DNA of 64,000 nucleotides from Massospora cicadina (lineage: Eukaryota; Entomophthoromycota; Entomophthoromycetes; Entomophthorales; Entomophthoraceae). Below, piece by piece: positions 1,560 to 28,570 of the stretch. The stretch's first letter is position 1; every line of letters starts with the position of its first letter. The translations under genes and the position numbers were made by a program. The stretch covers positions 124,001-188,000 of the forward strand of contig JAKSZP010014536.1 of NCBI GenBank assembly GCA_022478985.1. Direction: 5' to 3'. The notes under the pieces were generated by a model. The model ran no database searches, was not told where the DNA came from, and saw nothing but the letters and a program-made list of their open reading frames with translations.

Positions 1560-1610
1560 ACATCGATGAATCACTTCCCTTGGGTTGGGACCATCTAGTA
1601 CTAAAAAAAA
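1560..1610 (+). mobile_element. Micro-retroposon copy 1 (longest, about 50 bp)
   Basis: An insert ending gggttgggaccatctagtac plus an A-run lies between two copies of actaaggttc (1550-1559 and 1611-1620). Its tail matches the 3' end of the ORF1-only element at 12961-14865, which ends ggcaccactagtgctaaaaa after the same gggttggg. This is the longest of six such inserts and links the ultra-short ones to a parent element. A-tail and target duplication are the marks of target-primed reverse transcription. Confidence 0.75.
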
Positions 1611-1744
1611 ACTAAGGTTCTGGTATTAAATTCTGATGAAATGAAGTATCCTAATTTTCATGAATTATACTATTCTGTTAGCCTCCAAGCTCCTCATCTT
1701 ATATAAAAATGATTTATACTTACTAATAAAGATTTCATATAATT

Positions 1745-1766
1745 TTTTTTTTAGTACTAGATGGTC
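1745..1766 (-). mobile_element. Micro-retroposon copy 2 (22 bp)
   Basis: The insert reads gaccatctagtactaaaaaaaa on the minus strand when its two halves are joined (14-nt tail plus eight A). It is flanked by a perfect 16-bp direct repeat, aagatttcatataatt, at 1729-1744 and 1767-1782. It contains only the last bases of the parent element plus the A-tail. Confidence 0.85.
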
Positions 1767-1782
1767 AAGATTTCATATAATT

Positions 1783-2744
1783 CTCAATCTAAATTGTACT
1801 TCTTATAAAGCTAGAATTTAATTAAATACTTTGATTTGACCTACAATACTAGATTTATAGTGATTTTTTCTCTGTCCATTAAAATCTTAGAGGATATAAG
1901 AGATCATACCAAGGTTCACCTAGAGTCCTTAAGATTCATCAACTCTGATGCATTTCCCTATAACATATCTATTTTACTTTAGAAAAATAGATTTTACTTA
2001 TCTATAAATTTTATGAAAAATAAGTTATATATTAAAAATTGAATTAATAGTCAACAGTGTCATTTTTAGATGATGATATAGTCTATGCATGAGTACTATG
2101 TTATTCCTGATGAACTTAATTTAAGACAGAAATATATTTTAATATAAGAATCTTCATAACACACAAGATTTCGGACAATTTAGAGTATAAAGAACTATTT
2201 TTGTCAATTTATCTGCTAAAGCGACATAATAAGTTGGAATAAATTCATATTTGAATGATCAGAGGTCTTTTTGATGGTAAATAATTAAGGGTTCTAAGGC
2301 ACTAACTTATGACTTCTAGTCAAAAAAACTTATGCATATATGTGTATATAAGCACCTCATACATAAAATTTAGAAGTATGATAGGTAAAGTAATATACAA
2401 TGAACAAATGTAGTGGGAATTCAGAGAGGCGTATAATCAACTTTTAAAAGCAAATTTTGTAGATGATTAAGGCTAATCTCAGTAGAGCTTAAATTATACA
2501 AATTATTGGTAACAAACTATTGTCTTAAGAATTATAATACTCTTCTACTAATCTATCTTATAAAGTTCCTAAAGTATAAAATTTCCATCATTATGCTTTA
2601 TTGTATTTGTATGTTATGGTTTAAAGATTTAGGTTTTATTAAAAAAATATAATTGGAAGTAGAAGTATAAGATAGCTATTATCACCTCAGGGTGAATCTC
2701 CACCCTTGTTGTGGATTTTAAGCCAACATTATGAACAAACTTTT
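1783..2744. other. AT-rich DNA without a recognisable gene
   Basis: No open frame of note, RNA gene or repeat was recognised. The sequence is strongly AT-rich with scattered homopolymer runs. Confidence 0.5.
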
Positions 2745-3045
2745 TTAGCGCTAGTGGTGTGCAACCCAAAAGGGGGAGCCACCGCGCATCTTTACCTGTG
2801 AATGAGCCAAAATAAAAGTTATATTAGAAATAAAAAGAAATGTTCAAATTACCCCCAAGTTATCAGCCTAGGAAGTCATATCAGAAGGTGGGGAGGCTTT
2901 GGGGAAGCTTTTTTCCGGCGCCCACTTTAGCTGGTGGACCATAGTGGACAGCATCTGGGTGGGAGCATCACTAACATGGGGCATAGGGGGGTATAGTTGT
3001 AGATTTCTTTGTTTATGAGGCCAGCGGTGTCCATCGCCTCAACTT
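2745..3045 (-). pseudogene. 5'-truncated ORF1-element fragment (C-terminus and 3' UTR)
   Basis: Read on the minus strand, this segment parallels 14575-14865: a 'VMDTAGLIN'-like stretch, the 'MPHVxDAPT' and 'LKWA..KSFPKAS' motifs, an in-frame stop, then a 3' UTR ending gggttgcacaccactagcgc plus an A-run. It is thus the last ~60 codons of ORF1 plus the 3' UTR, as left by incomplete reverse transcription. A degraded target duplication may be present (tatgaacaaactt on the left, tatgcaataagtt on the right), but it matches at only about two thirds of positions. Confidence 0.65.
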
Positions 3046-3672
3046 TATGCAATAAGTTTTATATTGATTCTTTACAAGATAATTAAGTATGTATAATAAC
3101 CCTAACAAAATTAAAATCTTTTTCTCTGTAAACAAACAAAATTTCTAAGTTAGATATGTTTAATAGACAGCATATTTAACTTTTTAGTGACAGTTAATTT
3201 AGTTTTACTGTAACTTGACTTAAACCACCCTAATCAAATATTATAATAAAGAGCAAATTCATATTACTTACTTTATTTTACTTATAGAAATAAATATCAA
3301 ATATTCTAAAAAAACAACTTTAAAGGTCTTAAGGCTAGTAACTTGCCACTATACTTAATTCAAGGCAGGCCAATCTATGGACATACAATCATAGATTTAA
3401 TAAAAATTTAAGAAAAATGTGTTCTTTAGACTCATTTAAAATAAACTATAATATTTTTATTATCCTATGTGTTTTTAGCTTTTTAATATCTCTTATATAA
3501 ATAAATTAAATAAAAGAATTAATATATGTTAGTAGATAAATGTCCTGACATATTACAATCCTGTAAAATTGGGAAAAGTTAGACTTGCACTCAGCATGGT
3601 AGTTAGATACATAACTATGTTACAATCACCTGATAATTAAAACACAGTATGTAAGTTGATAAAAAATTAAAC
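3046..3672. other. AT-rich DNA without a recognisable gene
   Basis: No gene, RNA or repeat was recognised between the truncated ORF1 fragment and the ORF1-only element that follows. Confidence 0.45.
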
Positions 3673-3687
3673 TACTTTCAAACAAAT

Positions 3688-5587
3688 TCTTTAAAGTAAG
3701 ATTTCAGGCGATTGACATTACCTAAAACAATATAAAAATAAAATGGACTGTACCACTCAAGCAAGCAAAATGGCACCAAAACCAAACAAAATCAAAACTG
3801 ACCAGGCTGGCAGCGTCAAACTGCTAGCTGACCATGGCGGAGGGGGAGAGGGGATCAGAGGCCACTTTCAGCTTCATCAGCATGAAGCAAGGTATGGGAT
3901 TGAGTCATAAAGCAGGAGTGTGGGCATCTTCTGTATTGGGTTTAATATCTCCCAAGGGAGGATCAGGGAAGACATTGTGCGCCGCAGCAAAGTTACCATA
4001 GTATACTCCAAGTTTAAACTATGTCTGAATTCATTCACTGAGGAGCTTGAAAAAGGTGGCAATATTGGTACAGGTGATTTTGACTTTATGGTTCTTTGAA
4101 ACCGCCACAACATTCAGGATTGGATCATGGGTAATCTAATGGAATTTCAGGAGGTCACACTTACCTGCAGCAGTAAGGGTAGCTGGGACAGCTTGAGGAA
4201 GTAGACCATCTGCCAGCATCAAAAAACTTAGCTATGGCTTTTCAGAGAGGTTGACAGTTGGTCAAGGCATTTGCTTTAACAGCGAGCTGATGATCATAGT
4301 GGAACAGTACAGCACATATCTGAGGAACGTAAAATTGAGTGTGGAATTGGTCATTAAAATCTTTATGTAAATTTTTTTTTGCTTAAAGTCAGATGGTTCA
4401 ATGATTTCCCTGATTAAAAAACCTTATCCCATTAAGACCCAGGTTTCTGGTTAAATAATATTAAGGCCTTGGCATAAGGGTGATAGGGTGATATTGAACA
4501 GACAAATTATGAGGCGCTTGGGAGTGACTGGAGGTCCTAGCCTCTGCCTTATAGGCTAGAGGGCGAAATAATAGCTGAGTCTGGATGGGGGTGTTGGAGG
4601 AAGAAGTTTTGGGCGCTGTCCCAATGACTGAACTGGCAGTGGGGGGTACTGGCAACAAGGTACACCAGGTATAGTCTGCCAAATTGGTGTCAGTGTCAGA
4701 ATTTCTGTCATAAGCATTTTCAGCAGAATGCCAACATGATTTTTTGTGGTCCAAAGTAAAGAAGACAGGGCAAATATGTTATACATAGTCAATGTTTGCC
4801 CAAAAAATTTTTTGGGGGCTGCTGCAACATGGGACCATGAGAGACTTAGTTTAGTGATTTTCAGGTGGAAAGGGGTGATAGTATCATTAGCCTGGGGAGC
4901 CATGAGGCGCCTGACACTGTTAGGGACAGTGAAATGGAGAATGGGGTTTAAGCCATAGGCTAAAAGCCTCAATATCAACTCCTTATACAACACTTGGGGT
5001 GGGAGGTGAGATGGGAAATTAATGAAACTTACCACCATTGTGGTATAAGTAGGTAGGTGAGTATGTGTCATGGAATGAGGATTATTTTTATTAATAGGTT
5101 TGATTTTGGCTGCCATGGCAGAGTCTCCTTAAAGGGGATACCAAAGTCAAAATAGTTCTTAAAAGGATGAAGTTCAATAAATTCTACTGGTGCAAAAGTG
5201 TCATTGGCAAGCTCAATTACCTTATCAGCATATAGGAATAATCGCCTATAGTTACCTCAATGGCAAAATTGAATTTTGTAGCAAGGGAGGGCGAGAGGGT
5301 TTTGGTGGATTGGGTGGGCGCATGTGAGGTGAAGCGCTAAGTATCTTGGTGGGACATAATGACAATTTGTGGAATTTTGACTAGTTGCACTAGTTTGACG
5401 CACTTTTCTGGAGGGGCATAAAGCACTAGGGGGAGTTTCACTGCTGCCCCATACTGGAGCAGCTGGCGGTGGAGCCGTGGACTTCATTGTAGAATGTTAG
5501 TTGGTGGCTTAGTGTAAGTTTAATATTAGCTTATATTTGTAAATTGCTCAAAAGTGAAATGAAACTGAAAAAAGTTTCTAATTTGTG
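3688..5587 (-). mobile_element. ORF1-only LINE-like element, copy B1 (about 1.9 kb)
   Basis: A single decayed ORF1 fills this element; no endonuclease or reverse transcriptase is present. Gene order, length and 5' UTR resemble the copies at 12961-14865 and 31874-33799. Candidate target duplications are tactttcaaacaaat (3673-3687) and tactttaaaataagt (5588-5602), matching at 12 of 15 positions, so the borders are less certain than for the other two copies. The 3' end resembles that of copy B2 but is decayed. Micro-retroposon copy 3 later inserted into the right-hand duplication. Confidence 0.6.
3824..5487 (-). pseudogene. Decayed ORF1 protein of element B1
   Basis: LINE ORF1-type protein, presumed to bind RNA and chaperone nucleic acid in the retrotransposition particle. 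The ATG at 5487 opens a Pro/Ala-rich N-terminus (PPPAAPVWG, then YVPPRYLALHL) that matches the other two copies (PAAPAWGGG/YVPPQDLAHHL and PPPAAPVWGS/FVPPWDLALHL). The body is split over several frames (4556-5116, 4461-4754, 3877-4113). The zinc knuckle seen in the other copies is damaged here: ICPVFFTLDHKKSC has lost the second cysteine. The C-terminus 'SPSAMVS' before the stop near 3824 matches the 'SPSAMVG' end of copy B2, so B1 and B2 are closer to each other than to copy A. It is not translatable as it stands. Confidence 0.65.
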
Positions 5588-5609
5588 TACTTTAAAATAA
5601 GTATGTCTT

Positions 5610-5627
5610 TTTTTTAGTACTAGATGG
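5610..5627 (-). mobile_element. Micro-retroposon copy 3 (18 bp)
   Basis: The minus-strand insert ccatctagtactaaaaaa lies between perfect 16-bp repeats aaaataagtatgtctt at 5594-5609 and 5628-5643. It landed inside the right-hand target duplication of element B1 and is therefore younger than B1. Confidence 0.85.
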
Positions 5628-5643
5628 AAAATAAGTATGTCTT

Positions 5644-6064
5644 CATATAGGCTTAGTTTTTTTTTATATCTCTTAGATTTAGTTTTTTATTGTATAATTT
5701 TATATTTACTGAATACTATGTATAGTCTTTTATATATAAAAGGTTTAGAAAAAATTTCAACTGATGTTGGGCTTTGCCCTGATAAATATGAAGCCTCAAT
5801 TTAGGGCTTCCCTTTTTCTTATAACATAATTTACAACATGTCTAAAATATTATGATACTATTCTGATATGTGCCATGATGTTAGTCCTAATTTACTTAGG
5901 GCTCAATATAGAGAGACAATTTCAAAGCGATTTATATTCAACACAACAAAGTCACAAGTAAACAAATCAAGTAATGGACTGAGTAACATTTTGAAGATTA
6001 ATATCCCTCCTAGTGATCCACTAATTGGGATAAACAAGAATTGCCTCATGACTTGAATTACTAC
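5644..6064. other. Non-coding DNA left of the first LTR element
   Basis: AT-rich sequence. Two overlapping ~60-codon frames on opposite strands (5868-6088) look like chance frames. No feature was recognised. Confidence 0.45.
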
Positions 6065-6419
6065 TATTAAACGGGTTAATGATTCCATATTGATTTATTA
6101 GAATAGTTTTTTCATTCAATGAATATTCATTTTTTATCTTGATTTCAGTTGCATCTCCTATTTCATTCTAGGCATTGATATATCCTAGAAACAGGTATAA
6201 ATACCTTCAATTCTTATCACAATAAAGTATCAAATTATAGAGTTTAACTTCATGCTGTGTTTTTGTCTTTGAGTTTAAGAGATCTCTTTTTCTGGGCGTT
6301 TTTAGTCATAAACACCCAGGATTACTGAAAATGCCCGCCAAATTGATGACCCTTAAAACCCTGAGAGTTATGCTACGCCACCTGTCAGGGAGTACATCAG
6401 AACCCCTAGTTCCCCAACA
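6065..6419 (+). repeat. 5' LTR of element 1
   Basis: It matches 11148-11513 along its length, including 'catcagaacccctagttccc' just before the terminal ACA. It contains a TATA box (tataaata, 6196-6203) and a polyadenylation signal (aataaa, 6221-6226) 18 bases later, as expected for U3/R. The end is placed at ACA because sequence similarity to the other LTR stops there and a primer-binding-site-like stretch follows. Confidence 0.8.
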
Positions 6420-6422
6420 AAT

Positions 6423-6432
6423 TGGTGATCCT
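6423..6432 (+). promoter_or_regulatory. Putative tRNA primer-binding site of element 1
   Basis: ttggtgatcc begins three bases after the 5' LTR. TGG is the usual start of a site complementary to a tRNA 3' CCA end. The matching tRNA was not identified. Confidence 0.4.
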
Positions 6433-6434
6433 GC

Positions 6435-7650
6435 CAGGGACCTTGCGAATGTCTTACATAGCCAGGCCGCAACCCTGACGTTAATGAGACTCTATACAAG
6501 GCAAACCCTGAGAAATTTAAAAAATGGTCCAATAGACGAATGGTAGAAGCCTATAACTCCTGGGGTGATTATGATGTGAGTGACTTCCAATGACTCCGTG
6601 AGTGCCCAGCCTTCTAACAGGTGTGGCAAGGAGGTGGCACAATGCCAATCTCCCATTTGATAACTGTGTTGAATGGCAGGAGCGCACTTGTGAAAAATTT
6701 TGGTTATCCGCCACACAACTATGAGAGAAGCTCAAGTACATGTGCCTAAAGGATTATGATAACATCAACCATTTCCTATAAAAATCAAAGACCTACTTGG
6801 ACAATGTACCATTCTGGAACTTGACTCTGTGATGATATGGACCAGAAGTTATTGAAATTGTTTAATAATGCTTTAGAAGAACTATACCTAGATGCTGTCC
6901 TTGTTACCCACCTTCATGTGCTGACCATGCCATTGAAGTCTGCCGCCAATATGCTCGCCTAACCAGCTGTTGGCCTACAAAATCAACCTCTAGAAGGCTG
7001 GAGCTAGAGAAATAAGAGCCTGAGGGTGATGCCACCGCAAAGTTCTAACATATCATCCCTTACTCTGAGTTTACCATGAAGATGAATGCTCTCTCAGATC
7101 AAGTACAATATCTCACTATGCTAGTACAAAGATGGCCTAGAGACAACCTTTGCTGCCAAAATTGTAATGAGCCTGAGCATCATTTCAGACAGTGCCAAAA
7201 CCCCTGCTGGTGGCGTAAAGTGGTTTATGTAGATGGAAGGTGTCTTGCCAGAGTTAGTTGAATAAATCAATATGCACCTTCAGCTCCTGGGCAGACAAAT
7301 TTTTCCCAGTCTGTACCCTATCAATACCCTAATCCGCCACATATGCCTTATGGGGAGCGCCAGTGGGAAATATCCGCCGTATCCTTATCCCTATACAGCT
7401 CCACCACCAAATGACTACTATGGGATAGGGCAATGCCTTACCAGCACCCCTATGTCAGGCCACCACCAGGGCAGTCTCAGCCTCCCTCCAACAGATTGAG
7501 TACTAATCATCAAAGTCTGAAACATAACAAGCCCAGAAACTCCTGCTGGAAGAAATATATGCTGCTGAAAATGGAAACAAGAAGAATTAGCCAGCCACAT
7601 TAAATTTGACCCAAACAAAAGAATGATAATTGATGACCTTTTGAACCCAG
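6435..7650 (+). pseudogene. gag remnant of element 1
   Basis: Structural protein forming the virus-like particle. Fragments in shifting frames include 'ANPEKFKKWSNRRMVEAYNSWGDYDVSDF' in two pieces, then a C-terminal zinc knuckle at about 7150-7200: C-QN-C-NEPE-H-HFRQ-C, a perfect CX2CX4HX4C. Beyond it comes a Pro/Tyr-rich stretch (about 7380-7500). Several stops sit where a Trp, Gln or Arg codon is expected, consistent with C-to-T or G-to-A decay. The start codon cannot be fixed. Confidence 0.65.
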
Positions 7651-11105: not shown

Positions 11106-11133
11106 ACAACCGCTCAAACTTACCAATATAAAA

Positions 11134-11147
11134 ACGTATAGGGGGAG
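11134..11147 (+). promoter_or_regulatory. Polypurine tract of element 1
   Basis: The purine-rich run gtatagggggag directly precedes the TG that opens the 3' LTR, as expected for the plus-strand primer. Confidence 0.5.
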
Positions 11148-12960: not shown

Positions 12961-14865
12961 AATCTTTCTTTTGCTTTGATACCTAAATTATAGCAAAATT
13001 TGGATTTTTTAAAAAAATACAAAACACAACTGCTCAATTGAGCTAAAGCATACTGATGTCAATGCAATCAATGCCTGCTGCCCCAGCCTGGGGTGGTGGT
13101 GCACCGCCATCTGTCATCTTTCAGTCGCCACCAAAGTGCGCCCAGGCTGGCTCTGCCAGCCCTCCCAACGCTACTGGGCGTTATGTCCCCCCTCAGGACT
13201 TGGCCCACCACCTTGCAAGCTCTCAGGCGGTGCTCTGGAGCCCTTTGGTGCTCCCACAAAGCAATTTGCATTTCAGCCTCTGGGTCAAATATGAGAATCT
13301 TTTCCCATATGCAAGTGTGGCCATCATCAAGATGGCCATGGCGGTTTTCAAACCCGCTGGCTATATTGACTTCTGCCCCTCTAAGGGGTATTTTGATCTC
13401 AGCTTCCATTCTGAAGCTGATGCAGTGGCAGCAGCCAAGCTGCAGTTAATTTATAAAAAATTTCTTTGCCCACAGTTCACACCCAGCTCCTGGATGAGGC
13501 CACTTTGGTGATCCAGTTCGCCAGGTTGCCCTCCTTCCTCTCCCCAAATGCCTCCGCCATGAGCTCACAGAGGGTTTGGCCATTTATGGTGCAGACCCCA
13601 TGTTGCAGTTTGTGGTGCCCCATGGGGCGGATCATCTGGCAGGCCCTTGCGCCTTTGTGACAATCTGCACATTCAATCATGACACCCATCTCACGATTCC
13701 CCCCTGCATCATGATCAGGTCTGCCCCTGATCATCCTTTTTGGGTGCGCATCAAAAACAGCCACGCCATCTGCCCCTTGTGCTTTGAGCTTGACCACTCA
13801 AAGCGCAAGTGCCCCACAGTTTCTGCTTCCATTGCCCCCCCTTCTGGTGCTGCCCCAGCAGCTGCCTCACCCCAATTTTTTGAATGGGGTGTGATCTTCC
13901 ACCCCCACCCTCAGGTAATTCTAGCACTGCTTCAAAAACTGCAGCCAGTCAGAATTTAAAATTTTTAAAAAATTTGAATAATTTGGCCAGGTTATGGAAT
14001 TTTGAGTCAATGGCTGAAACAGTTTCAGCTGAGCTGCTGTGGTCAACTGTTTATAGCCAATCAGGTTCCACCACTGTACCAACTCCTGTGGTTGTGCCAG
14101 CGCTAGCTGAGCTTAGTCCATTTGAGTGTCTTGATTGGATTGATGATAGTGACTGGCCATACACTGCGAAGCCAGATTTTGCATCGGAGGAGTTTTTTAT
14201 TGATCCTCCTGATTCGCGCCCCCGCCATTTTTGCTCTAAAAGTGGCTTTCCAAATTATAAAAATATTAATCAAATGGCAGTGAAAGCCAAAGCTGCCCCT
14301 GCCAACACCCTCCTCCACCAGCATCTCCATGGGGTGATGGAACCCCTAGTTGAGAGTATTCCCATCCCAAATTTCCCTTCCAATTTTGATGAAGATGCTA
14401 AATATGAAATTGAAGAGCTTGCTTTTGGTGCAAGCCATGCTTGCATTGACGCAGCAAAAACCTCTCTTTTTGACCCCAACTATCCCCAAACCCAAAAGTC
14501 CATCAAGACTTTTAATTGTGTGCCAACTCTTATCACTTTTGCTGAGCATCAACTTGCTCAATATGTTAAGGTGATGGATACCGCTGGCCTCATAAATGAA
14601 GAAAACTCACAGCTATATCTCCTCATGCCCCATGTCGCTGATGCCCCTACCCCTATGTTGTCCACCTTGGTCCTCCAGCTAAAGTGGGCGCTGGACAAAA
14701 GTTTCCCCAAAGCTTCCTCGTCTTCTGATATGGCTTCCTAAACTGATAAACTAGGGGCTATATTAGGAATTTTTAATTTAAGATAATCCCTTTGTTTAGC
14801 CCATTTGCAAATAAAGATGCGTGGCAGCTCCCCTTTTTGGGTTGGGCACCACTAGTGCTAAAAAT
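12961..14865 (+). mobile_element. ORF1-only LINE-like element, copy A (1,905 bp)
   Basis: Perfect 14-bp target duplications, tagagtttctagga, flank it at 12947-12960 and 14866-14879, so the borders are direct. Inside are a 95-bp 5' UTR, one ORF1 and a ~120-bp 3' UTR ending ggcaccactagtgctaaaaa. No endonuclease or reverse-transcriptase sequence is present, yet the element is full-length by its duplications. It is comparable in design to the mammalian HAL1 half-LINEs (known ORF1-only derivatives of L1); the relationship is analogy, not homology. Confidence 0.85.
13056..14741 (+). pseudogene. ORF1 protein of element A (three frameshifts)
   Basis: LINE ORF1-type protein of about 560 residues, presumed RNA-binding. 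The ATG at 13056 opens a Pro/Ala-rich N-terminus (PAAPAWGGGAPPS; YVPPQDLAHHL). A likely RNA-recognition-type segment follows (IIKMAMAVFKPAGYIDFCPS), then a perfect CX2CX4HX4C zinc knuckle, C-PL-C-FELD-H-SKRK-C (about 13770-13815), then a long C-terminal domain rich in acidic and hydrophobic residues up to the stop at 14741. The frame moves 0-2-1-0 near 13465, 13575 and 13890, so three small indels separate it from an intact gene. The last 285 codons are uninterrupted. GC content and codon use are visibly higher than in neighbouring DNA. Confidence 0.75.
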
Positions 14866-15008: not shown

Positions 15009-15279
15009 TATTTAAGGTGGGACAACCTGGGGATGATACCAAACCAATTAAGGGAAATCAAATGAATGGGAAAGGAGGATAATATCTGGAAAACTTTACG
15101 TGAAGCATATGATAGGCCAGGAACTTCATGGACTGCCTTTGCTATTTGCTATTTCAGTTTAAAATTGGTGCGCAACGCCAACACAGTCATAATTGTCCCC
15201 TACCCAAAGTTCCAGTACCAGATTTGAACTTGGGAGGCAGCAGTAGAGGTCCCTAATCTACCACTTGGGTATCCTCCCC
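15009..15279 (-). mobile_element. tRNA-derived SINE, family B (old, CpG-depleted copy)
   Basis: Collinear with the copy at 28669-28946. Minus strand: tRNA-like head (B-box now 'aagttcaaatctgg'), body, and the shared tail near 15009-15035. Nearly every CpG in the other copy appears here as TpG or CpA (for example gacgatacc becomes gatgatacc; atcgaactcggg becomes tttgaacttggg). No unambiguous target duplication. Confidence 0.75.
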
Positions 15280-15399
15280 TAAGTTGTTTTAAATTAATAT
15301 AAAGGACTTCAAATAATCATATATAGTATATGTTGATCTTATGCTTAGAACCTAAAGTTATTTTTTTAGAAAAAACTTCATACATTTATTTAATTATTA

Positions 15400-17620: not shown

Positions 17621-17689
17621 TATAAAGTATTATATATTTTAAAGTTTATTCAGAGAAGGCCAACCATGGGATGGAAACTTCCAAAAAGT

Positions 17690-20600
17690 AACAACAATTG
17701 AGCACTAAGATGTACAAGAGTCACCCCAGAGGAGCTAAAGCTACCTCCTGTTGCCAGCGGGAACGCCAATGGAAGGAAGAGGGGTATCATGAGGAGAGGC
17801 TTGTGCCTCTACTGAGCATGTATAAAGGAAAGGATCTGAGGTGAGGAATTATACAGAGAACCAGGATGAAACCAACTGCCATTGGCAGGATGGCAAATGG
17901 CAAACAACCAGGCTTTGAAGTGTCCCATAAGGTGAAAATGGAAGCAACTCATAGCTTCTTGGAGGGTGGTAGTAGAGCCAGAAATGGCGTCAAGGACAAC
18001 CGTTTGTATCTCCCACATAGCAATTGCCACAACTAAAACGTGGAGGGAAGGGTGGATGTGGGAAGTCAAGAAAAGTTAAAGATGCCTTAGACAGGCTGAA
18101 AGCCTGTGTTTGGTCCTGAAAAAAGAGATGCTGAACCTCACACCAGATCACTTGTGAAGGTGACAATCTTCCAAGTGGTGAACCAAAGTCCCGTGTTGGT
18201 CACACACAACACACAAAGAATGAGAAGCATTGGACCACTCCACAGTGCGGTATACCCACTTCAGTCAGCACCATACATGGGAACAAATCTGTGTCTGTAA
18301 AAGAGGGTGGTGGGTAAAAGCCTGAGATGTCTTTATGGGTTGCCAGGGAGTATGGGATCTCCAATATGTCAAGATAGACCACATGAGCAATGGTAGGGGG
18401 ACAACTGGGTACCAAATTGTCATAATGACTTTCTCATGACTTCCTATTTGAAAAAGGAGTAGGGCGACCCTTTGAAAAGTGTGACCACTGACACTGATCC
18501 TCCACTATGCGCTCCGCATGTTAAGGAGGATCCTTTTAAAGTAGGCAGGGTCCCATGCAGGCCTGTGGCAGATGGGTGAGAGGCCATATAGGTAGAAAGA
18601 GAATTAGGGTGGGTGGGGTTGTGGAGACCAAGGACTCAGTCAAAGTTGACATGCCACATGCAACCAGTGCTGGGCCAGGAGTGTGGTATTGGTCACTGAA
18701 GCAATCCATGTGCCCAGGATCCTGGATACATGGGCCACGTAGTTGAGCAGGCCCATACCACCACTTTGGCGTGGGCCAAAGAGGACCTCCTGTTGCACAG
18801 GGGGAGGGCGACCTATCCAAAGACACACTTGTAGGAGGGCATATAAAGAATCAAAGAAGGAGGGGGAAAGGCAATGGCATGGTCAGCAAACCATACTTTT
18901 GACAGGAACATAGCGTTGGCAAGCACTACTCTACCTGTCAGGATAGTCTGGTGAGCCCAAGGGATGCGATGTGCTTTGTGACGTTGTCTAATATGTGGTT
19001 CTCCATTACTGAAGTGGAGTACACACCCAACTCCAGCCATACTCCCAGGTGGCGCACTGGGCCAGCAGTGGGTATGGACACAAAAGGGAGCATGAGAGGG
19101 GTGAATTGGTGTGACTGCCTGGGTAAGCTGTGAAGAGACCAAGCAGCTGGATCACTCTGATTGAGGGATAATGGAGACCATCAGAATCATTATCTACCAA
19201 GGAGAATGATTTTGGTTTTGGATGCGTTGTGGGCAGCGTTACTGGCCCTGGAGTACCCCCAGATAGTGGACTCCAATGCATGTGCATCATGGTTGATAGA
19301 CACCCCAACCACACAAATGTCAGCAAAAGAAAGCATCCTGACTGGTGCTTGGCCTTTCATCTGAACACCAGAAATTCTTGTATTAACACTGCAAATAAGA
19401 AGGTCAAGTCTAAAGTTGTATAAAAGTGGACTCAAGGTGTCCCCTTGACAGAGATCACTTTGAGGGTGAACCAAATTAGTGAGGAAACTTGGTCCCTGCA
19501 CTGCCATCGTGGCTGATTTGGTAAGCAACATTGTTTAACTGATGAACTGGGGGAGGTGAAGCTGATGAATGCAGGCCCTAAGGTAGTCCCTGCTGACCCT
19601 ATCATAAGCTTTCCGTTGGTCTAATAACACAAGCGCCCCAGTATCTGGAGATTGGTAGGCATTGGCCACAGTGTGAATATTGTCACATATTGACCGCTTG
19701 GGAACAAAGCCAGATTTCTCAGGGAGATTACCTCAGAGGCAACTTCTCCTAAGCAGTTAGCCATTATTTTTGTAAATATCTGGTCTTGGTATTATTAAGG
19801 GAATAGGGCACCAGTATGCCAAGTTTAGCCTATCCCCCTTCTTAAACAACGTTACCATGTAGGCCTTTGGCCCCCAGGAAGGAGGTGTGTCTCTAAAAAT
19901 ATTTTCTCATCAAGGCTAGCAATAGGGGGATAAATAATTAATATAATTTTTATAACTCATAAGGAACCCCATATGAACTTGGGCTCTTTTTGTATGGTGC
20001 ACCACAAACTGCATACCAGAGTTTGTTGTGGGTTATTACTTTCATCAGCTCTGGATAGTAAAAACGGTGCAGATGTGTGCGTCATGAGGAAATCATTGAT
20101 TTTGGCAGTATCAACTGGGTTGCCCTGTATAACTTGGAGTAATAGTTTTGAACTTCAGTAGATACTTCAGCTGGCGTTTCTGTAATGGAATTGTCCAGGC
20201 GCCTCACCTGTGTGCAGGCCAAGTTTTGGCATAGGGCAAAAACTTGGTGGAAAAAGTAGGCGGAGCACTTTTTGCCTGAAGTGATATTCTTTGCCTTGTA
20301 ATGGACACAAACGCGGTGTTTGTGTTGTCTTATCAGCATGTTAAGATGGGCATATACTTTGGTCCAATTTGTGACCCCAAGCAGGGCTTTACCCTGCCCT
20401 GTGGACATTATTCCTCATGTGGTCCACTTTAACAAGGGTGCGTTTAATGACTGCTGAAGCAGTCCAATAGCGCCATGATGAGATGTGACATTTTTGGAAG
20501 ATTAAGTCTGCTTTAAAAGTTGACCAGGTCAACAGAGGATCAGCACAGAATGGAGTTACAAACTCATGTGTCAAAGTGGTGGTGTCCATCCAACTTGAAA

Positions 20601-21440
20601 AGTGGATGATGTGAGGTTGTTGGGGAAAAGTTTACTCCACTTAGGCGTCTGTGGCACCATTCTTGGCAGAGTAAATACCACTAAAAAATCATATGGTCAA
20701 AGAAATCTATTTTTGTAGTAGTAAAATATGAGATCTGGGGGTAAAAAATAAATGGGGCAAGTAGAAAACTTTGAAGGACATAGACATCAGCTTCCCATTG
20801 TGAACATGGAGACATGACATGTTGGGTAGTAATGTTGCATGCTTGGGGAGGGTATCAAAAAGTCCCAAGGTGGCTTTCATAACTCAAAGTTTGACGTGCT
20901 CCTGCAGTGGGGAAGGTGAAGAAGGCCAGCGGTCAGTGGTTAGGTTGTCCCAACAGTTTAGGTTGCCAACCAAAAAGGAATTGGAGGGGGGAAGAGAAGC
21001 CATGGCCTAGAGGAATTCCCAGTGAACCCATGCAAAGGTTGGAGCATAGATATTAACTATTGTGTGCATTTTGGTGTCCCATGAAAAGGACATAACTAGC
21101 ACATGATCATCAAGAAAAATTATTTTTTATAAAAAATTAAAATTATGGTTTGCACATATAAGCACCCAACAGTGCAGCAACCAAAAGATTTGGGAGGGGA
21201 GGAGCATGGTTGCCCATGTGTCCTTTGCACCTTGTTGACAGAGGGTTTCCTGAATTGCTAGGATGTCCATAGGTAAATTTATTTTAAGAAAACTCAGTTT
21301 TTTAGCCTGGGATGGAAAGGACTTGAGTCCAGCAATGTTTAGCATCCCTATTGTGAAGGATCCCCCATCATTTCTTAGAAGTGAGGGGAGGACCCTCAGG
21401 ACCTGCCAATTCATTTTACCATGCAAGCTCAGCCTTTGCT
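17690..21440 (-). pseudogene. ORF2 of the 5.2-kb LINE (endonuclease, reverse transcriptase)
   Basis: Endonuclease nicks target DNA and reverse transcriptase copies the element RNA there. An AP-endonuclease N-terminus is readable at 21127-21426: 'IGMLNIAGLKS' then 'MDILAIQETLC' (the Glu of the QET motif is kept). At 20082-20408 comes the pre-RT region ('VRRLDNSITETPAEVS'). The polymerase at 19190-19531 shows 'QGDTLSPLLYNFRLDLL' and 'LSFADICVV', where the catalytic YADD reads FADI, so the second aspartate is lost. The post-RT 'RVVLANAMFLSKVWFADHA' lies at 18890-18950 and 'GGMGLLNYVAHVSRILGTW' near 18700-18760. Stops and frameshifts throughout. Confidence 0.8.
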
Positions 21441-21469
21441 TTTTGTAGGTGAGTGTTCAAGGAGGGAGT

Positions 21470-22794
21470 ATCGTCAGGCATATAAGTATTATCTTTGAGG
21501 GTGGCTTTAGCCATAGTTTGGATTTTTTGTTTGGATTTTTGATCTTTGCAATTTTTTGATATACCATGGATTTTGTAGTGCACCATCGAGATTATTCAAC
21601 AATTCTTATCCAAAAATCTCACCTAATTCTGAATTGGAAAATTCACTTGCATTCATTGTGCAGGAATCCTACAGGTGTGTACCAAGCGCATTTTGTGGGT
21701 ACAAGGAATAGCTATCCAATTTGATTGGGTGAGTATTTGGGATTCCACCAAAGCAGCAAATATGGCCTGGTCAGCCTGAGTTTGGGCAGGGGGATGGCGG
21801 AGGTTGCCGTGGCTGCTGCCTTAGCTTGCTCTTGGTGTTGCTGTTTGGCTTTTTTGCATTATTGTGAGGACACAGGTTTTACCTGGATATAACACCCCTG
21901 GTCGCCCATGGGAAGGTGACATTAGAGTCAGATGTGGGTTCACAGTGGCCAGCTCACATTGCATCTGAGTAAGTCTCATTCAGAATATTTTCCTCTTTGA
22001 TAGTACAAGTGTGTAACTTGTTGCCAAATGCATGACAATGAGTGCAAATGGGTGGTGCACTGTCAACTGTAACATGGAATGGTTGAGTTTGTTGCCCATT
22101 ATTGGTGAGAGTAGCATTGTTTGGAATCTGAGTCAAATCTTCAGATATGCCTGAGAATGTGGTGATCACCACAATAGCCTTACTCAAGCTAAGTTTAGGC
22201 ATAATCAAGAATTTTTGCATTTCAAAGAAGCAAATTTACCTGTAGCTTTGAAGTCCTGCTTGGAGATGGACTTTGAGGACTTCATGTCTAATGGTTGTGG
22301 GAAGAAAATCAAATGTGACAAAGACTTGGTTAAATTTCTTGCAGCGCATATGCTTGGTTTTGATCACTCATTGACCATTCAGGAGATTGACCATCACATG
22401 CACCTGTGCATCAGCGTCCTCTGCTTGTGCTGTCTCAAACCTGAGTTCCAATCATCTGCAGATCATTGAGTGCAGTGCTACATAAACTTCCAGGAAGTGG
22501 GTGCATATGTCATCACAGAAGTTCTCCCAAAGAGCTTTTAAATTTATATTAAGGAAAGCTTGGACCCCAAATTTACACCAACAATAGTGGATGGGAGTGT
22601 GGAGTTCTGATGTACTGGTTGCACTTTTCTTGCCATTCCAAAATTTCTGGTGAAATACTCACTGCAGAATTTTTATTTTTGTCAGGGCCACTGGTGTCTC
22701 CAGGGCATTTTCTAACTTTGGGCAGTGCAAACACCAACCATGTGCTTTTCACCACGCTTGCACAACCTTTACCTGGCATTGGACATGTACTCAT
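21470..22794 (-). pseudogene. ORF1 of the 5.2-kb LINE
   Basis: Minus-strand ATG at 22794 (MSTCPMPGKGCASVV) is the first ATG after the short 5' UTR. The N-terminal piece ends at 22573; later pieces run in other frames. Around 22020-22060 'CTHCHAFGNKLHTC' is a gag-type zinc knuckle whose histidine has become Asn (CX2CX4NX4C). A Gln/Ala/Pro-rich stretch follows near 21750-21850. The protein is presumed to bind the LINE RNA. It is not the same ORF1 as in the ORF1-only elements: the N-terminus and flanks differ. Confidence 0.6.
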
Positions 22795-22889
22795 CTCCCA
22801 GTTTGGATTATCAAACTTTAACTGTCTTGAATTGAATCAGTTTCAATTAGTGATTGCAATTGAAAGAAAAGTTTATAAAGTATTATATA

Positions 22890-24469
22890 GTCTATACTAC
22901 TATCCTAAACAGTAAAATAAGCAAAACTATATATTATAACATTGAAGATACATTTTTGAAGAAATTGATATCCTATTATTAGTTTTTAACTCTTTTCCAA
23001 AATAAAATGTACTTATTATAAGTGTAACAGATGAGGCCCCCAAGGCCCTGCTCACCATTTGACATAATTTAAACATAAGCCAAAAGAGAGCTGCCTTGAT
23101 CATTTGGTGGAATAGGTTGCATTAAAATCCTAAAAAGCATGACTCAAACAATACCAAAAGGAAAGTTAAGTTATGTTAAATTTGGGTGTTCTGAAATATT
23201 ACATGCAAAGTGATATAAACACAAAATATACCCCAGCAGGCTGAGGTGCAGTGGACGTTCAATATGCAGATATCCTCTGTCACCTGGTGGGCTTCACAGA
23301 GCTGTGCTTGAATAGCACATACCAACCCTGGCTCTAATGTGGGCTAAGGTACAGCAGGTGATCATGCCACACCTGCCTCAGATTATCCATGCCTGCTGTT
23401 TAAATGGGCTATTACATTTATGGTAGCCTAAGGTCCCAGATGGAGAGGGTTACAGGTATTCTCAGTACTGGTTGCTCCAGTTCTTCCTGTCATAACACTT
23501 TAATTACAATTCAAAAGTGCCCTCATAGCCTTCCAGAACTTGGTTTTTCTTCCTTCTGAAAACACATAATCTTTATAAACTTATAAAAATTAAAAATGTG
23601 ACTCCCAAGTGGGAGTTTAGACATATGCAAAAAGGGCTTTATTTCAATAGAAAATATTGAGAATTTCAGGTGAAGAAATGAGGAGCTCATCCCTAACTGA
23701 TAAATTAAGCCTTTCAAGAGCTACACAAATTAATAGTTTAGGTGTTGAGAAAGCCTAACAAACATTTGCATACCAACAACTATTCACTGGTGGATTAAGG
23801 GAGCCTAAAATAACAATAATCTGCCAGAAAATATAAATTCATTTAAAAATATCCCAAATCACCTCAACTTGACAATTAAGTCATGTTGGAGAAGTGTATA
23901 TGTTACCACTTGGAATAAGGATTTCCTAAGTCCCAACCTCAGGAAACTCTCATGTATGATCACCAATTGTTACAATAAGTCTAATTAGCATAATTATTCT
24001 ATAACAAAGTAGGACAAAAGTGATATAAATTTAGGATGTAATAGTAAATTATTAAAAACAGACAATCTAGATAGACTCATAAACCAATTTCTGTTGGGCT
24101 GTCTACTAACCCATATCATATGATATCTTAAAAGACTTAAGACAATAGTGTTAAATTTAAAAAGCAAAAAATTGGTTATGTAACTATTGTATAACTAATG
24201 ATATTTAATAAGTTTGTATATGCTATAAGATAAATTTTATTTTTATGAAAGTATCAAATAGATATCTGTTTGGGTAGATGTTATTCAAAAATTAAGTAAC
24301 TGCATTTTATATAAACAATTTTAGTATTTAGAATTGTTCTAGGTTATATGTTATATATCTTGATAATTTTGGAAGATTAGAATTCCTTTTTAAAACTTTT
24401 TTCTTTGCTCACTGTGGTATATGTCTATCTTTTTAGTGGAATCTTGCAATTGATTTTTAACTACCTATT
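22890..24469. other. Non-coding DNA with a GC-richer island
   Basis: No gene was seen. A GC-richer island at about 23225-23490 stands out from AT-rich flanks, but it has no open frame, no promoter boxes and no direct repeats that I could find; it may be an old transposon piece. Confidence 0.4.
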
Positions 24470-24920
24470 AAACTAGCTAGAGCTTTGAAATTGGCACACT
24501 TATGTATCTCCAATGACAATACAACAATCCATTAAAAATTTTATTTTCATAGTAATTTTGTATGTACCAAGTGAAAATCCTATATGTTTTGATATAGTTG
24601 GTATATCATTTCAGGTGAGCAGTTTAATATTTGGTTGCTCCAATAGGTTTAATAGTTTTGTCAAGTGGTTGGTGGTTTTAAGTTGCTTAATAAGTTGATG
24701 GTTTTAAGCAGGTAGTGATTGGTTGATTTGATATGTTAATTGGGTTTGGTAAGTTGTTGGGTCTTGGTTGTTTCAATAAATAAGTTGGTTGTTTTATCAA
24801 GAAGTTGGTGATTGGTTGATTCAAAAGTTTGATCTAACTTTCCAGACTAGCTAGAACTTTGAAATTTGACAAACTTATGTATCTTCCATGACAATACAAT
24901 AATTTATTAGAAAATTTCTG
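24470..24920 (+). repeat. Pair of ~75-bp direct repeats (24470-24548 and 24843-24920)
   Basis: Both copies share 'actagctaga.ctttgaaat', 'cacttatgtatct'/'aacttatgtatct' and 'atgacaatacaa' in the same order. The ~300 bp between them is rich in degenerate 'ggttggtggtttta'-type repeats. Possible internal repeats of an old element; function unknown. Confidence 0.55.
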
Positions 24921-25005
24921 AAAAAAAGTGAATTTTGCAAAATAAAAATGGGTTACTTATAATTATTTAAAAACTGACAAAAGCTTATAGCCCTACATTA
25001 AAGAA

Positions 25006-25078
25006 TGGAGCTGCAGGGTTTCGATCCCCGTGCCTCCCGCATGCAAAGCGGGCGCTCTACCAATTGAGCTACAACCCC
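25006..25078 (-). tRNA. tRNA-Ala (anticodon TGC)
   Basis: A 73-base cloverleaf folds fully: 7-bp acceptor (GGGGTTG with CAGCTCC), D arm GCTC/GAGC, 5-bp anticodon stem CCCGC/GCGGG around the loop TTTGCAT (anticodon TGC at 25043-25045), 5-base variable region and T arm CGGGG/CCCTG. The G3:U70 wobble pair, the main identity element of alanine tRNA, is present, and the discriminator is A. There is no intron and CCA is not encoded. A weak T-rich stretch (TTCTTT) follows on the minus strand as a possible Pol III stop. Confidence 0.95.
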
Positions 25079-25539
25079 ATTTCTTAAGGAAATGCTTATA
25101 ATTCTTATTGCATATAAAGTATGACGCTTGCCGAATTTAACTAGAATATCAAGCTTAGGGTATAACTCACTAGTGGAATACCCGTGCTTCGCTACGGTGT
25201 TTATAAATTACCTGGCGATTCTAAATCATTTTAGTTTTTATATCGGTCGATAGCTTTCAATAAGTTCAGAAACCATTAAACCTATTAAAAATTCCAACCT
25301 CCAACCACTTAGCCAAAATCAATTAAGCCTGTCAAATTAAATTAAACCATCAATCTCTTACCTGAAACTACTGAGCCTATCGAATCAACCAAAAATAAGC
25401 CACCACTCAACAAAAACTAATTGAACTTGCAAAACAGCCAAAAACTATCAACTTAACCCTTTCCGTCATTTTCAAAAAAATCATCCGTTTTTTGGCCTTA
25501 AATTTGGCACGAATTTCTTAGCCGATGTTCACTCTTTTT

Positions 25540-25559
25540 TTAGTACTAGATGGTCCCAA
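25540..25559 (-). mobile_element. Micro-retroposon copy 4 (about 20 bp)
   Basis: The minus-strand insert ttgggaccatctagtacta plus A lies between 18-bp repeats ccgatgttcactcttttt at 25522-25539 and 25560-25577. Part of the A-tail coincides with the T-run of the target, so the exact tail length is ambiguous. Confidence 0.82.
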
Positions 25560-25656
25560 CCGATGTTCACTCTTTTTAAGCTCATTTTGGTCCTTGTTGT
25601 GACACGAATATTCGATAAATTTTAAAATAAATCTACATATATCTTATTTTAATTGG

Positions 25657-25757
25657 ATGCATATATGCGTTTTTAATTTACATACCCCTCGATTTTTGAA
25701 CGCATATATGCGTTTTCAGATTTACATCACCCCCTATTTTTGGACGCATATATGCGT
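25657..25757. repeat. Three palindromes in a 43-44 bp tandem array
   Basis: acgcatatatgcgt (14-bp perfect palindrome) occurs at 25700-25713 and 25744-25757; atgcatatatgcgt occurs at 25657-25670. The spacers (tttacat...cccc...ttttg) are also alike. The unit could be a hairpin or a protein-binding site within the surrounding candidate element. Confidence 0.75.
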
Positions 25758-26734
25758 CGAATGATTGAAAGGGTTAATATCAAAGCTTATGAACTATCGA
25801 TTTAAATGAATATGAAAATACTCAGCCAAATTGCTGTATAATTACCATCAGAAACATACGTTTTGGATCTTATATAAAACAGTTATAAATTCAAGTGTGT
25901 TTATTAAAAAAGTATATTAATATTCCCAAATTTTATAAGGTATTGTGCAAAGTTTGGTGATTTTTGATTATTTGCTAATGAGATAATACAGCTTATATAA
26001 ACGAAAAAAACGATAAATTTTGTAAAGAAAAGTTTAGGCTAATTCTTGTTGATACCCAGTTTAACACAGATTTGTTTGCGGGTTTAAAGTTTACCAGATG
26101 ATCCTAATCGATTCTTTTTTATATTAGTAGATGGCTATCGATAAAATTTAAGAATCAAATTATATTGAATCAATATAATATTACCAACCACTCAGCCATA
26201 CCCAATTAAACCTATCGAATTATCTAAAACTTCAACCATTTACCTGAAACCATTGGCTATCGAATCATCTAAATCTACCACCCACCACCCACCACCCAGT
26301 TAAAACCAATTGATGAACTTTTAAAACAGCCAACAACCAATAACCACCAACCACTTAGCAAAACTAACTAACTTATCGAACTAACCAATCACTAACTGCT
26401 TATTAAAACCGTTAAGCTTATTAATCAACCCCAAAACCACCAACCGCTCACCAAAACCATTTAAAATCGAATCAACCAAATATCTAACTGCTCAGCCGTA
26501 ACGTTATACAATTTCCATTAAAAACATAAGATTTTCACTTGTTACATATAAAACTTTTTATTTTACTATGACAAACAAAAAATCCTTTCTTATTGCATAT
26601 CTACAGTATCTAGTGAATATCTATGCAAAGTTTCATCTTTTTAGGCCTTGTCATTGTTGTGTTACAGTGATGAGAGTGAGTGAGTGAGTGGGCTTTTGCA
26701 TTCATATATATAGATATAGTATATAATATTATAT

Positions 26735-26746
26735 ACAATGTTGTTA

Positions 26747-26785
<39 letters not shown>

Positions 26786-26891
26786 ATATTAAAAATATTA
26801 TATATATATTTAGATATTATATTTAATATTAAAAATATTATAAATATATTTAGATATTATATATAATATTATAAATATTATATATAATATA
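26735..26891. repeat. TA microsatellite and AT-rich tandem repeats
   Basis: A (TA)n run of about 30 bp near 26750-26781 is followed by two similar ~41-bp units (atttaatattaaaaatatta, then aatatatttagatattat). Slippage-prone low-complexity DNA; it served as the target of the following SINE. Confidence 0.75.
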
Positions 26892-27008
26892 AAAAGTATT
26901 CAAGGTGGGTCAACCTTGGGACAAATATACCACACCAAGAATTTTTCCAGCCAATACAGGTTTTGAACTTGTATTGAACAAAATCTGCACTGGGGTGGAA
27001 GCAGGAAA
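26892..27008 (-). mobile_element. tRNA-derived SINE, family A (second copy)
   Basis: Matches 12682-12820 over most of its length, including 'ccacaccaagaatttttcca' and 'caggttttgaacttgtat' (B-box region). It lacks the outer part of the tRNA head, so it is slightly 5'-truncated. A 15-bp duplication attatatataatata flanks it at 26877-26891 and 27009-27023; because the site is TA-rich, the duplication is suggestive rather than decisive. The tail matches SINE-B and the LINE. Confidence 0.7.
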
Positions 27009-27258
27009 ATTATATATAATATATATTATATATATATTTACATACTTTGTATGATTGTATGTATGATTGTATGCAAGTGTACACACCTTGCTTTTCTTGC
27101 AGTCATATATGAATAATTTTTTTAAAATAATTATTTTAGAAAAAAACTATTTTTTACTTTTTAGTGCAACTTTTTTATTTGATTTTGTTTTTTTACTATA
27201 TAATTTTTACTTTTTTACTTTTTATTATTTTCTCTCTTTAAGAAAAGCAAGTTTTTTA

Positions 27259-27372
27259 CACTTTATTCAAGATAAAAGAACCATGAGACCTTACTTATTT
27301 TTTTTAGTACTAGATGGTCCCAAAGAGACCTTACTTATTGATCTGTAAAAAACAGATATTACATCAGGTACT
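27259..27372 (+). mobile_element. Short A-tailed retroposon, interrupted by micro-retroposon 5
   Basis: Perfect 16-bp repeats aaaagcaagtttttta at 27243-27258 and 27373-27388 bracket it. The 3' end 'acatcaggtact' runs into AAAA, resembling but not equal to the ccatctagtact tail. Without the later insertion it would be about 74 bp. It contains a small inverted repeat (atctgtaaaaaacagat). Confidence 0.6.
27300..27324 (-). mobile_element. Micro-retroposon copy 5 (25 bp)
   Basis: The minus-strand insert tttgggaccatctagtacta plus A5 lies between 15-bp repeats gagaccttacttatt at 27285-27299 and 27325-27339. It is nested inside the older short retroposon. Confidence 0.85.
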
Positions 27373-27388
27373 AAAAGCAAGTTTTTTA

Positions 27389-28570
27389 AAAAATATTTTT
27401 TATTTTATCTTCTACTTTTTAATCATACTTTAATTAAATTATTATACATTTCATAAGTTAAATTAGTAGGTTAATTTAGTTTCTTAGATAACATTATATA
27501 TGAAATTTACTATATGTTTATAAAACAGTAACCAAATTTTTATTCAAAGTTTTATGGAACAGAGTAATCAAATAGTAAAGTTTTTTAATTAAAATACAAT
27601 TTTAAATTATTAAACTCTTTTCTTGTCACTTATATATATTTAAGGTTTCAGTTGTTAAAAAATTAAGTTGATTTTGGCTAATTGAATGGTGTTTTTGGTT
27701 GATTCAATAAGCTCATTTAGGGTCTGGCCAAATGTTTGGTGGTATATTATTTGGTTTGATAGATTTATTTTTGACATGATATATGTCCTATGGCTGGGGG
27801 CATATTCAAAATCCAGGCAAGTATAAGATCATAACTGATGAGCTTAAATGGTTAGAAATGGCACCATCTAGTACTAAAAAAAATGGTTAGAAATGGCTAT
27901 CATTTTTGTATAATGTGACCCATAAAATCAACCAGATTAGTGAAATGAAATAATGTAGATGGCAATCAGTAAATTTAGTATTGATTTATGCATAAAATCA
28001 ACCGAATAAATAAAATAAGGTAATATGGATAGATATCTGAAAGTTTACCATATAATTAACTGATAAAATCAGCTAAATATAAAACTAAATATGTTAAAAA
28101 GTGCCAACCTTATACCTGTACCTGAAATGTTGGACCAATCAAATCAACTGAACAATTATATATATTTCATAGAATATTTGTGTCAAGTTTATTTGAGATT
28201 AGTAAATAGCCTAGGAGTAGAGGTTGAGATACACATGCATTTATAATAATTTATTTATAAGATGATTTCCTAAACCACCACAACTAAAATGCTACCTAAT
28301 TTAATCTAAATCAAATAAAATCTAATCTACCAGCTACTTGCCTGCTGTCATACACAGTTTAGTTAGGCTAATCCAACCATTACTTAAGTAATCTAATCAT
28401 CTCAAATATTATTCTTTTAAAAGGTAAATGATAAAACTATGATAGTCTCTTATCATAATAGTAGATAAAATGGTAAGAAAGTTTCCAACAACCTTCAGCC
28501 ATAAGGTATATATCATGCACTTAAGTTTTTTACCATAAGGTAAAACTTGAATCATTTTTATAATCAGTTT
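27389..28570. other. AT-rich non-coding DNA with one micro-retroposon
   Basis: No gene seen. Degenerate repeats such as ttggttgattcaataagc (about 27690-27715) recall the repeats at 24560-24850 and the inverse ones at 25260-26510. Micro-retroposon copy 6 lies at 27863-27880. Confidence 0.45.
27863..27880 (+). mobile_element. Micro-retroposon copy 6 (18 bp)
   Basis: accatctagtactaaaaa lies between 17-bp repeats aaatggttagaaatggc at 27846-27862 and 27881-27897. It is one of only two of the six copies inserted in plus orientation. Confidence 0.85.

What the first reader, a model, noticed from the sequence alone, without database searches (positions are those of the whole stretch)
1560..27897. 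Micro-retroposons: six 18-51 bp inserts with A-tails and 10-18 bp target duplications
At 1560-1610, 1745-1766, 5610-5627, 25540-25559, 27300-27324 and 27863-27880 the same sequence, (gg)accatctagtacta plus A-run, sits between direct repeats of 10, 16, 16, 18, 15 and 17 bp. Five of six copies carry only 13-20 bases of the parent plus the tail. The longest copy extends into gggttggg, as does the 3' end of the ORF1-only element A and of the fragment at 2745. LINE 5' truncation normally gives a broad length range; a cluster near 20 bp suggests systematic early abortion of reverse transcription or a distinct short RNA template. Such scars are easily missed by repeat annotation.
Basis: seen in the sequence. 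Interest (0 to 1): 0.88.

Follow-up and report, generated by a model that had tools for sequence, protein, structure and literature searches.

The report
Thousands of tiny aborted retrotransposon copies
In the giant genome of what is almost certainly a cicada-infecting fungus, a jumping gene appears to have left tens of thousands of scars only about 10 to 45 letters long, because copying of its RNA into DNA usually stopped within the first few dozen letters, at preferred points rather than at random lengths.

Summary
All six inserts are real: same 3' end, A-run, exact 13-18 bp target duplications. The 1.47-Gb assembly, almost certainly Massospora cicadina, holds 32,266 exact copies of CCATCTAGTACTAAAA; reversed control 0. 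I read the 100 listed places: 90 are tiny, 10 long (91/9 by script; one is an internally deleted long copy). Duplications: 91 of 97 copies scored short, window's included; 2 of 959 with shuffled flanks. Lengths are not smooth: 61 of 100 at 13-21 nt (peak 14), 10 at 22-33, 0 at 34-39, 19 at 40-49 (11 at exactly 42). Bodies of 9-12 nt exist but are fewer. Paralogous repeats show the empty site. The parent is a 6.4-kb LINE with endonuclease and reverse transcriptase (L155), not element A. A related ORF1-only family with a similar tail shows no 13-33 nt copy in 20 read. Best explanation: target-primed reverse transcription that habitually aborts, first after about 20 nt of cDNA including tail, then beside AATAAA. 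Why it stops, or whether short RNAs are the templates, is unresolved.

The parts
1547..1620 (+). micro-insert 1 (42-43 nt body + A-run, insert 1560-1607) with its two 13-bp target duplications AAAACTAAGGTTC (1547-1559, 1608-1620)
1729..1782 (-). micro-insert 2 (15 nt body, insert 1745-1766) with 16-bp duplications
5594..5643 (-). micro-insert 3 (13 nt body, insert 5610-5627) with 16-bp duplications
25522..25577 (-). micro-insert 4 (19-21 nt body, insert 25540-25559) with 18-bp duplications
27285..27339 (-). micro-insert 5 (19 nt body + one extra T, insert 27300-27324) with 15-bp duplications
27846..27897 (+). micro-insert 6 (14 nt body, insert 27863-27880) with 17-bp duplications
12961..14865 (+). 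element A: ORF1-only element with a related 3' end (GGGTTGGGCACCACTAGTGCTA-A) and a 14-bp duplication TAGAGTTTCTAGGA; comparison family, not the parent
2746..5500 (-). element B (5' edge approximate): degenerate ORF1-only element, related 3' end GGGTTGCACACCACTAGCGCTA-A, interrupted by other sequence at about 3044-3775; no duplication found (best exact repeat 8 bp)
   Evidence: extent is inference by eye
17637..22873 (-). degenerate LINE of another family (RT 33% identical to the parent LINE's), between 16-bp duplications TATATAATACTTTATA

Best explanation
[quoted passage not shown] The endonuclease nicks a T-rich strand, the nick primes on the short A-tail of the LINE RNA, and in most recovered insertions the enzyme stops after about 20 nt of cDNA (tail plus 9-21 nt of body) or, less often, at body position 42 beside the AATAAA of the 3' UTR. 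The second strand is cut mostly 13-19 bp away and the product is sealed by end joining. Shown: exact common 3' end, short tail, target duplications, paralogous empty sites, a full-length relative with its own target duplication and EN/RT domains, and the discontinuous length distribution in 100 places. Inferred: the nick-and-prime steps (known for LINEs, not tested here), that the stops occur during reverse transcription of a long RNA rather than on pre-shortened RNAs, and the reason for stopping.
For: Target duplications of median 16 bp (81 of 91 between 13 and 19) in 91 of 97 copies scored under 60 nt; shuffled flanks 2 of 959. The left copy of the duplication starts with A in 85 and has A second in 80 of 91, as expected for an L1-type nick. 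Empty paralogs carry one target copy: L083 against L086 (93.5% over 200 nt), L055 and L080; L150 against L099. Full-length relative L155:697-7138 between exact 15-bp repeats with EN, RT and zf-RVT matches. Body lengths 9-21 graded around a peak at 14, the shape of premature stopping; cDNA including tail has median 20-22 nt in 72 copies of up to 33 nt body. Junctions of 85 genome copies: 35 blunt, 30 with overlap, 20 with extra bases, so joining does not depend on microhomology.
Against: The stop at exactly 42 (11 of 20 copies between 34 and 72 nt) is sharper than plain low processivity predicts. The ORF1-only family, with a similar tail and a predicted fold that is more stable in the last 60 nt (-15.7 against -11.2 kcal/mol, though not over longer stretches, -20.6 against -27.9), has 0 of 20 copies in the 13-33 nt class, so neither the hairpin nor a generally poor enzyme explains the pattern alone. 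No RNA data were available.
Confidence: 0.62

Rival explanations
1. The templates are short RNAs: 3' fragments of the LINE transcript (about 20-22 nt and about 50 nt including tail), made by RNA interference, decay or 3'-end processing, are captured by the LINE machinery and copied to their 5' ends.
For: Sharp 42-nt class beginning at the last A of AATAAA; class-1 total length median 20-22 nt, near small-RNA size; absent from the related ORF1-only family in the 20 places read.
Against: Class-1 bodies are broad (9 to about 25 nt; the peak at 14 holds 18 of 100 places), not one RNA size. All copies studied end at the same 3' base with an A-tail (the search pattern imposes this, but the pattern-free window scan gave the same ends). 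None of the 12 copies scored at 42 nt has more than one extra base at the 5' junction.
Confidence: 0.2
2. Stops are imposed by host factors on the LINE RNA or cDNA: for example proteins bound at AAUAAA block the enzyme there, and early end joining cuts the reaction short near 20 nt.
For: The 42-nt stop borders AATAAA, and the only 2 short copies among 20 ORF1-only copies (L184, L187) are also cut beside their AATAAA although it lies at 45-46 nt. Passages of PMC2666801 say that end-joining proteins divert LINE (ZfL2-2) insertions toward truncated copies.
Against: Only two informative copies in the second family; class 1 is not explained by AATAAA.
Confidence: 0.12
3. Chance motif plus microsatellite noise, or an assembly artefact.
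For: The published assembly of the presumed host is Nanopore-based (PMC9584336, part 1 of 3 read), so A-run lengths are uncertain.
Against: 32,266 copies against 0 for the reversed pattern; duplications 91 of 97 against 2 of 959; empty paralogs.
Confidence: 0.01
4. A short SINE family with its own promoter.
For: Short, A-tailed, TSD-flanked, high copy number.
Against: Bodies of 9-49 nt have no room for a tRNA, 5S or 7SL head; the only Rfam match in the window at gathering threshold is a tRNA-Ala elsewhere; the 5' ends are graded truncations of a LINE 3' end.
Confidence: 0.02

Closest known systems
5'-truncated L1 (LINE-1) insertions of mammals
   Same: common 3' end, A-tail, target duplications around 15 bp, A-rich target start, variable 5' end
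   Different: here 90 of 100 places read carry under 50 nt of body, with two preferred stops and an empty range between; in the passages I read of PMC2912911 insertions were taken only from 50 bp upward, so scars of this size would have been left out
Isolated ultra-short retrotransposon insertions in human disease (an Alu of 6 nt plus 40 A, marked as shortest in the table of PMC4859970; passages seen)
   Same: insert made almost only of the 3' end and tail
   Different: a single case, with a 1.4-kb deletion; here a very large number with clean target duplications
Half-L1 (HAL1) ORF1-only elements of mammals (mentioned in passages of PMC4859970)
   Same: elements A, B and C of the window keep ORF1-like sequence, and a tblastn with the parent LINE's RT found none in them
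   Different: not the parent of the micro-inserts; 3' ends differ and 18 of 20 genome copies of family A read extend at least 80 nt
LINEs with EN, RT and zf-RVT domains (among the 120 listed of 1058, named fungal rows include Lichtheimia, Rhizopus and Mucor; the best row is a plant-named LINE-1 ORF2 fragment)
   Same: domain content and order of the parent LINE
   Different: at most 40% identity in any listed row; clade not resolved by a tree here

Membership tests
LINE copy made by target-primed reverse transcription | target-site duplication of variable length around 15 bp | tested here: met
   91 of 97 copies scored under 60 nt, median 16 bp; shuffled flanks 2 of 959
LINE copy made by target-primed reverse transcription | constant 3' end with A-tail, variable 5' end | tested here: met
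   the 3' core is fixed by the search pattern, but the window scan that ignores it gave the same inserts
LINE copy made by target-primed reverse transcription | empty site with one target copy | tested here: met
   paralogous repeats of two inserts shown residue by residue (search); no sister strain tested
LINE copy made by target-primed reverse transcription | full-length relative encoding endonuclease and reverse transcriptase | tested here: met
   L155:697-7138, PF03372, PF00078 and PF13966, 15-bp duplication; its frames are interrupted in this assembly
LINE copy made by target-primed reverse transcription | L1-type nick preference TT/AAAA | tested here: inconclusive
   A in positions 1 and 2 of the left duplication in 85 and 80 of 91, but bases 5' of the nick were not tabulated
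LINE copy made by target-primed reverse transcription | cDNA made from LINE RNA by the LINE enzyme | not testable with these tools
   no RNA or biochemical data
SINE | RNA polymerase III promoter head | tested here: not met
   bodies under 50 nt; Rfam finds only a tRNA-Ala elsewhere in the window
MITE or other DNA transposon | terminal inverted repeats and fixed-length duplication | tested here: not met
   A-tailed, asymmetric, duplications of 9-23 bp, mostly 13-19
derived from ORF1-only element A | same 3' terminal sequence | tested here: not met
   A ends CACCACTAGTGCTA; micro-inserts and L155 end GACCATCTAGTACTA

The most novel reading that the evidence does not exclude
A dedicated class of short RNAs (about 20-22 and about 50 nt with tail), cut from the 3' end of a LINE transcript, is itself the main substrate of the LINE machinery in this fungus, so that the genome records tens of thousands of insertions of small RNA.
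Probability: 0.2. Interest if true: 0.88.

Novelty: new variant of a known kind. Interest (0 to 1): 0.76.

Why it matters
Where LINE reverse transcription stops is usually inferred from broad length distributions. Here some 29,000 events (90 of 100 places read, applied to 32,266 copies; an extrapolation from the first-listed contigs) could map stops at base resolution, with two stop regions and a related family that lacks the first in 20 copies read. That makes questions about initiation versus elongation, road blocks and host restriction directly testable. Scars this short are likely to fall below ordinary repeat annotation (not tested here), so LINE activity in this and perhaps other large fungal genomes may be undercounted.

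Tried and rejected
Element A as parent: rejected, its 3' end differs. A hairpin at the G-runs as the sole block: weakened, because the ORF1-only family is predicted to fold there too yet is not cut there in 20 places read; fold predictions also change with the stretch given. G-quadruplex: allowing it did not change the predicted folds. Microhomology-driven joining: not needed. Ascertainment (the pattern needs 13 nt): tested with a 9-nt pattern; the 9-12 nt class exists but is smaller. The 48 prokaryotic and 5 viral matches were treated as chance and served as control. ORF1 protein search: no hit. The position table printed is shifted by one base against the body lengths; one search has the right indexing. 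Literature: six searches listed nothing that I recognised as describing such micro-inserts (searches returned no papers); of the listed papers I saw titles and abstract beginnings, plus passages of three (PMC2912911, PMC2666801, PMC4859970). That library lacks most subscription journals.

Known weaknesses of my counts: the 100 places are the first listed, from contigs C1-C7, not a random draw. L077 is scored 14 nt by the aligner, but an exact 14-bp repeat puts it at 39 nt; corrected, the 13-21 class would be 60 and the 34-39 range 1. L067 is scored 58 nt but is a long copy with an internal deletion. Window copy 27863 is scored 18 by the aligner and 14 by its duplication. Six of the 97 copies scored under 60 nt have no duplication by the score used (L067, L077, L080, L085, L089, L108). 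Full lengths were determined for two of the ten long copies only. The empty-site search also printed many self-matches and weaker cross-matches that I did not inspect or count. One insert-like pair appeared in the reversed control.
Full report
Observation. A window scan that knows nothing of the insert sequence (exact repeats of 11 bp or more) finds the same six plus one SINE of 278 bp and a palindromic repeat, and nothing in the reversed sequence. A laxer scan (9 bp or more) finds the six, the palindromic repeat and three weak pairs; its reversed control gives four. Fifty-three chance occurrences of the 16-mer in other collections have no flanking repeat above 7 bp.

Host. The clearest gene in the window, a GH16/CRH2-like protein, is 65% identical over 71% of its length to one of Entomophthora muscae. 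The window lies in an assembly of 1,469,884,898 bases in 16,968 contigs whose contig C1 is 1,107,499 bases long. The published Massospora cicadina MCPNR19 assembly is 1.488 Gb with a longest scaffold of 1,107 kb (PMC9584336, part 1 of 3 read). I infer that this is the host; total size and scaffold count differ (19,694 published), so it is not proven. Passages of PMC11105155 report an expansion of LINE elements in M. cicadina.

Genome-wide copies. CCATCTAGTACTAAAA occurs 32,266 times, the reversed pattern never; with two more A, 31,059 against 0. I took all 100 listed places (C1-C7) with the six window copies, 106 in all, and aligned each to the 3' end of long copies. Of the 100 genome places: 61 have bodies of 13-21 nt, 10 of 22-33, none of 34-39, 19 of 40-49 (11 at exactly 42), one of 58 and nine of 73 or more. 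The one of 58 (L067) is a long copy with an internal deletion, so 90 are tiny and 10 long; one copy scored 14 (L077) is more likely 39 nt. A constant stopping rate fits badly (chi-square 66, p=1.6e-13).

Target duplications. 91 of 97 copies scored under 60 nt have a duplication by a tolerant score (85 by a stricter one); when each left flank is paired with another copy's right flank, 2 of 959 do (0 by the stricter one). Median length is 16 bp; 72 of 91 are perfect, 17 have one and 2 have two mismatches, so many insertions look young, with assembly error as a caveat. Junctions of 85 genome copies: 35 blunt, 30 overlapping, 20 with extra bases.

Empty sites. Some inserts lie in repeats that have unoccupied paralogs among the fetched DNA. 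The L083 insert lies between two copies of AAGGGATGCGTTTGATCC; L086, L055 and L080 carry a single, nearly identical copy at the same place and no insert (identities 89-93.5%). L150 against L099 shows the same. This demonstrates insertion with target duplication directly for these two; other cross-matches were not inspected.

Below 13 nt. CTAGTACTAAAAAA (9-nt body) occurs 37,792 times against 47 for the control. Eighteen of its 100 listed places were not in the first list (82 were, by my comparison of the lists); all 18 were fetched. Thirteen are inserts with 9-12 nt of body (three of them with 1-3 extra bases) and exact 14-18 bp duplications (two, L158 and L159, show the same sequence), four are long ORF1-only copies, and one has no duplication found. 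One insert of 5 nt turned up in flanking DNA. So the peak near 14 nt is not an effect of the pattern.

Parent. L155 holds a full-length copy at 697-7138 between exact 15-bp repeats AATCTCTTCCCTGGC. It has an ORF1 with a CCHC motif (read by eye) and ORF2 pieces matching Exo_endo_phos, RVT_1 and zf-RVT; its frames are interrupted in the assembly. Another copy (L154/L059) is cut at about 505 bp; by eye it has a 17-bp duplication with one mismatch (sequence). The database proteins listed are LINE-type reverse transcriptases, at most 40% identical (120 of 1058 listed). The window's own LINE at 17637-22873 is a different family (33% in RT).

A comparison family. The ORF1-only family of element A has a similar 3' end and 4,931 copies of ACCACTAGTGCTAAAA. 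Of the first 20 listed places, all read, 18 extend at least 80 nt, two are cut at 45-46 nt beside their AATAAA, and none falls in the 13-33 nt class. The four ORF1-only copies met were also long; against nine long of 100 in the LINE family, Fisher p=1.6e-4. The samples are small and the family looks older by eye.

Mechanism. The anatomy is that of LINE insertion by target-primed reverse transcription. What is unusual is where copying ends: tail plus body is about 20-22 nt in the first class (72 copies), and position 42, the last A of AATAAA, in the second. A predicted stem covers positions 14-17 and 20-22 (and, in one fold, 9-12), near the first stop, but the comparison family is also predicted to pair there and is not cut there, so structure alone does not explain it. 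A length near 20 nt would also suit an enzyme that fails to pass from initiation to elongation (inference). The AATAAA stop, seen in both families at different distances, suggests something bound or cut there (inference from few copies). Short RNA templates remain possible.

Verdict. A real, genome-wide phenomenon: a known mechanism with an extreme, patterned outcome that I did not find described in the searches named under Tried and rejected.

Noticed in passing
window 12961-14865 (+), about 2746-5500 (-), 31874-33799 (-): Three related ORF1-only elements, two with target duplications (14 and 13 bp) and similar length (about 1.9 kb): a half-LINE-like family; the tail of the first occurs 4,931 times in the genome.
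   Followed up: partly
window 17637-22873 (-): Degenerate LINE with ORF1 CCHC, endonuclease-like and reverse-transcriptase-like frames between perfect 16-bp duplications.
   Followed up: partly
window 28652-28963 (-) and about 15030-15290: tRNA-like SINE copies; the first has a 17-bp target duplication and a tail unrelated to the micro-inserts.
   Followed up: partly
window 29505-30878 (-): GH16/CRH2-like gene, 65% to Entomophthora muscae, whose C-terminus is an array of 69-nt tandem repeats, 23-aa units.
   Followed up: no
window 35305-36182 with 49081-49956; 36779-37858 with 44324-45399: Two nested pairs of direct repeats, 87-96% identical, with reverse transcriptase and integrase matches at 46276-48596 inside the outer pair: looks like one LTR retrotransposon inside another.
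   Followed up: no
window 25659-25757: Three spaced copies of the palindrome ACGCATATATGCG(T) next to micro-insert 4.
   Followed up: no
L089 near 256 (+): A 5-nt body (TACTA plus A-run) between 16-bp duplications, the shortest insert seen.
   Followed up: partly
L184 and L187: The only two short copies among 20 ORF1-only copies read are cut beside AATAAA, matching the 42-nt stop of the LINE family.
   Followed up: partly
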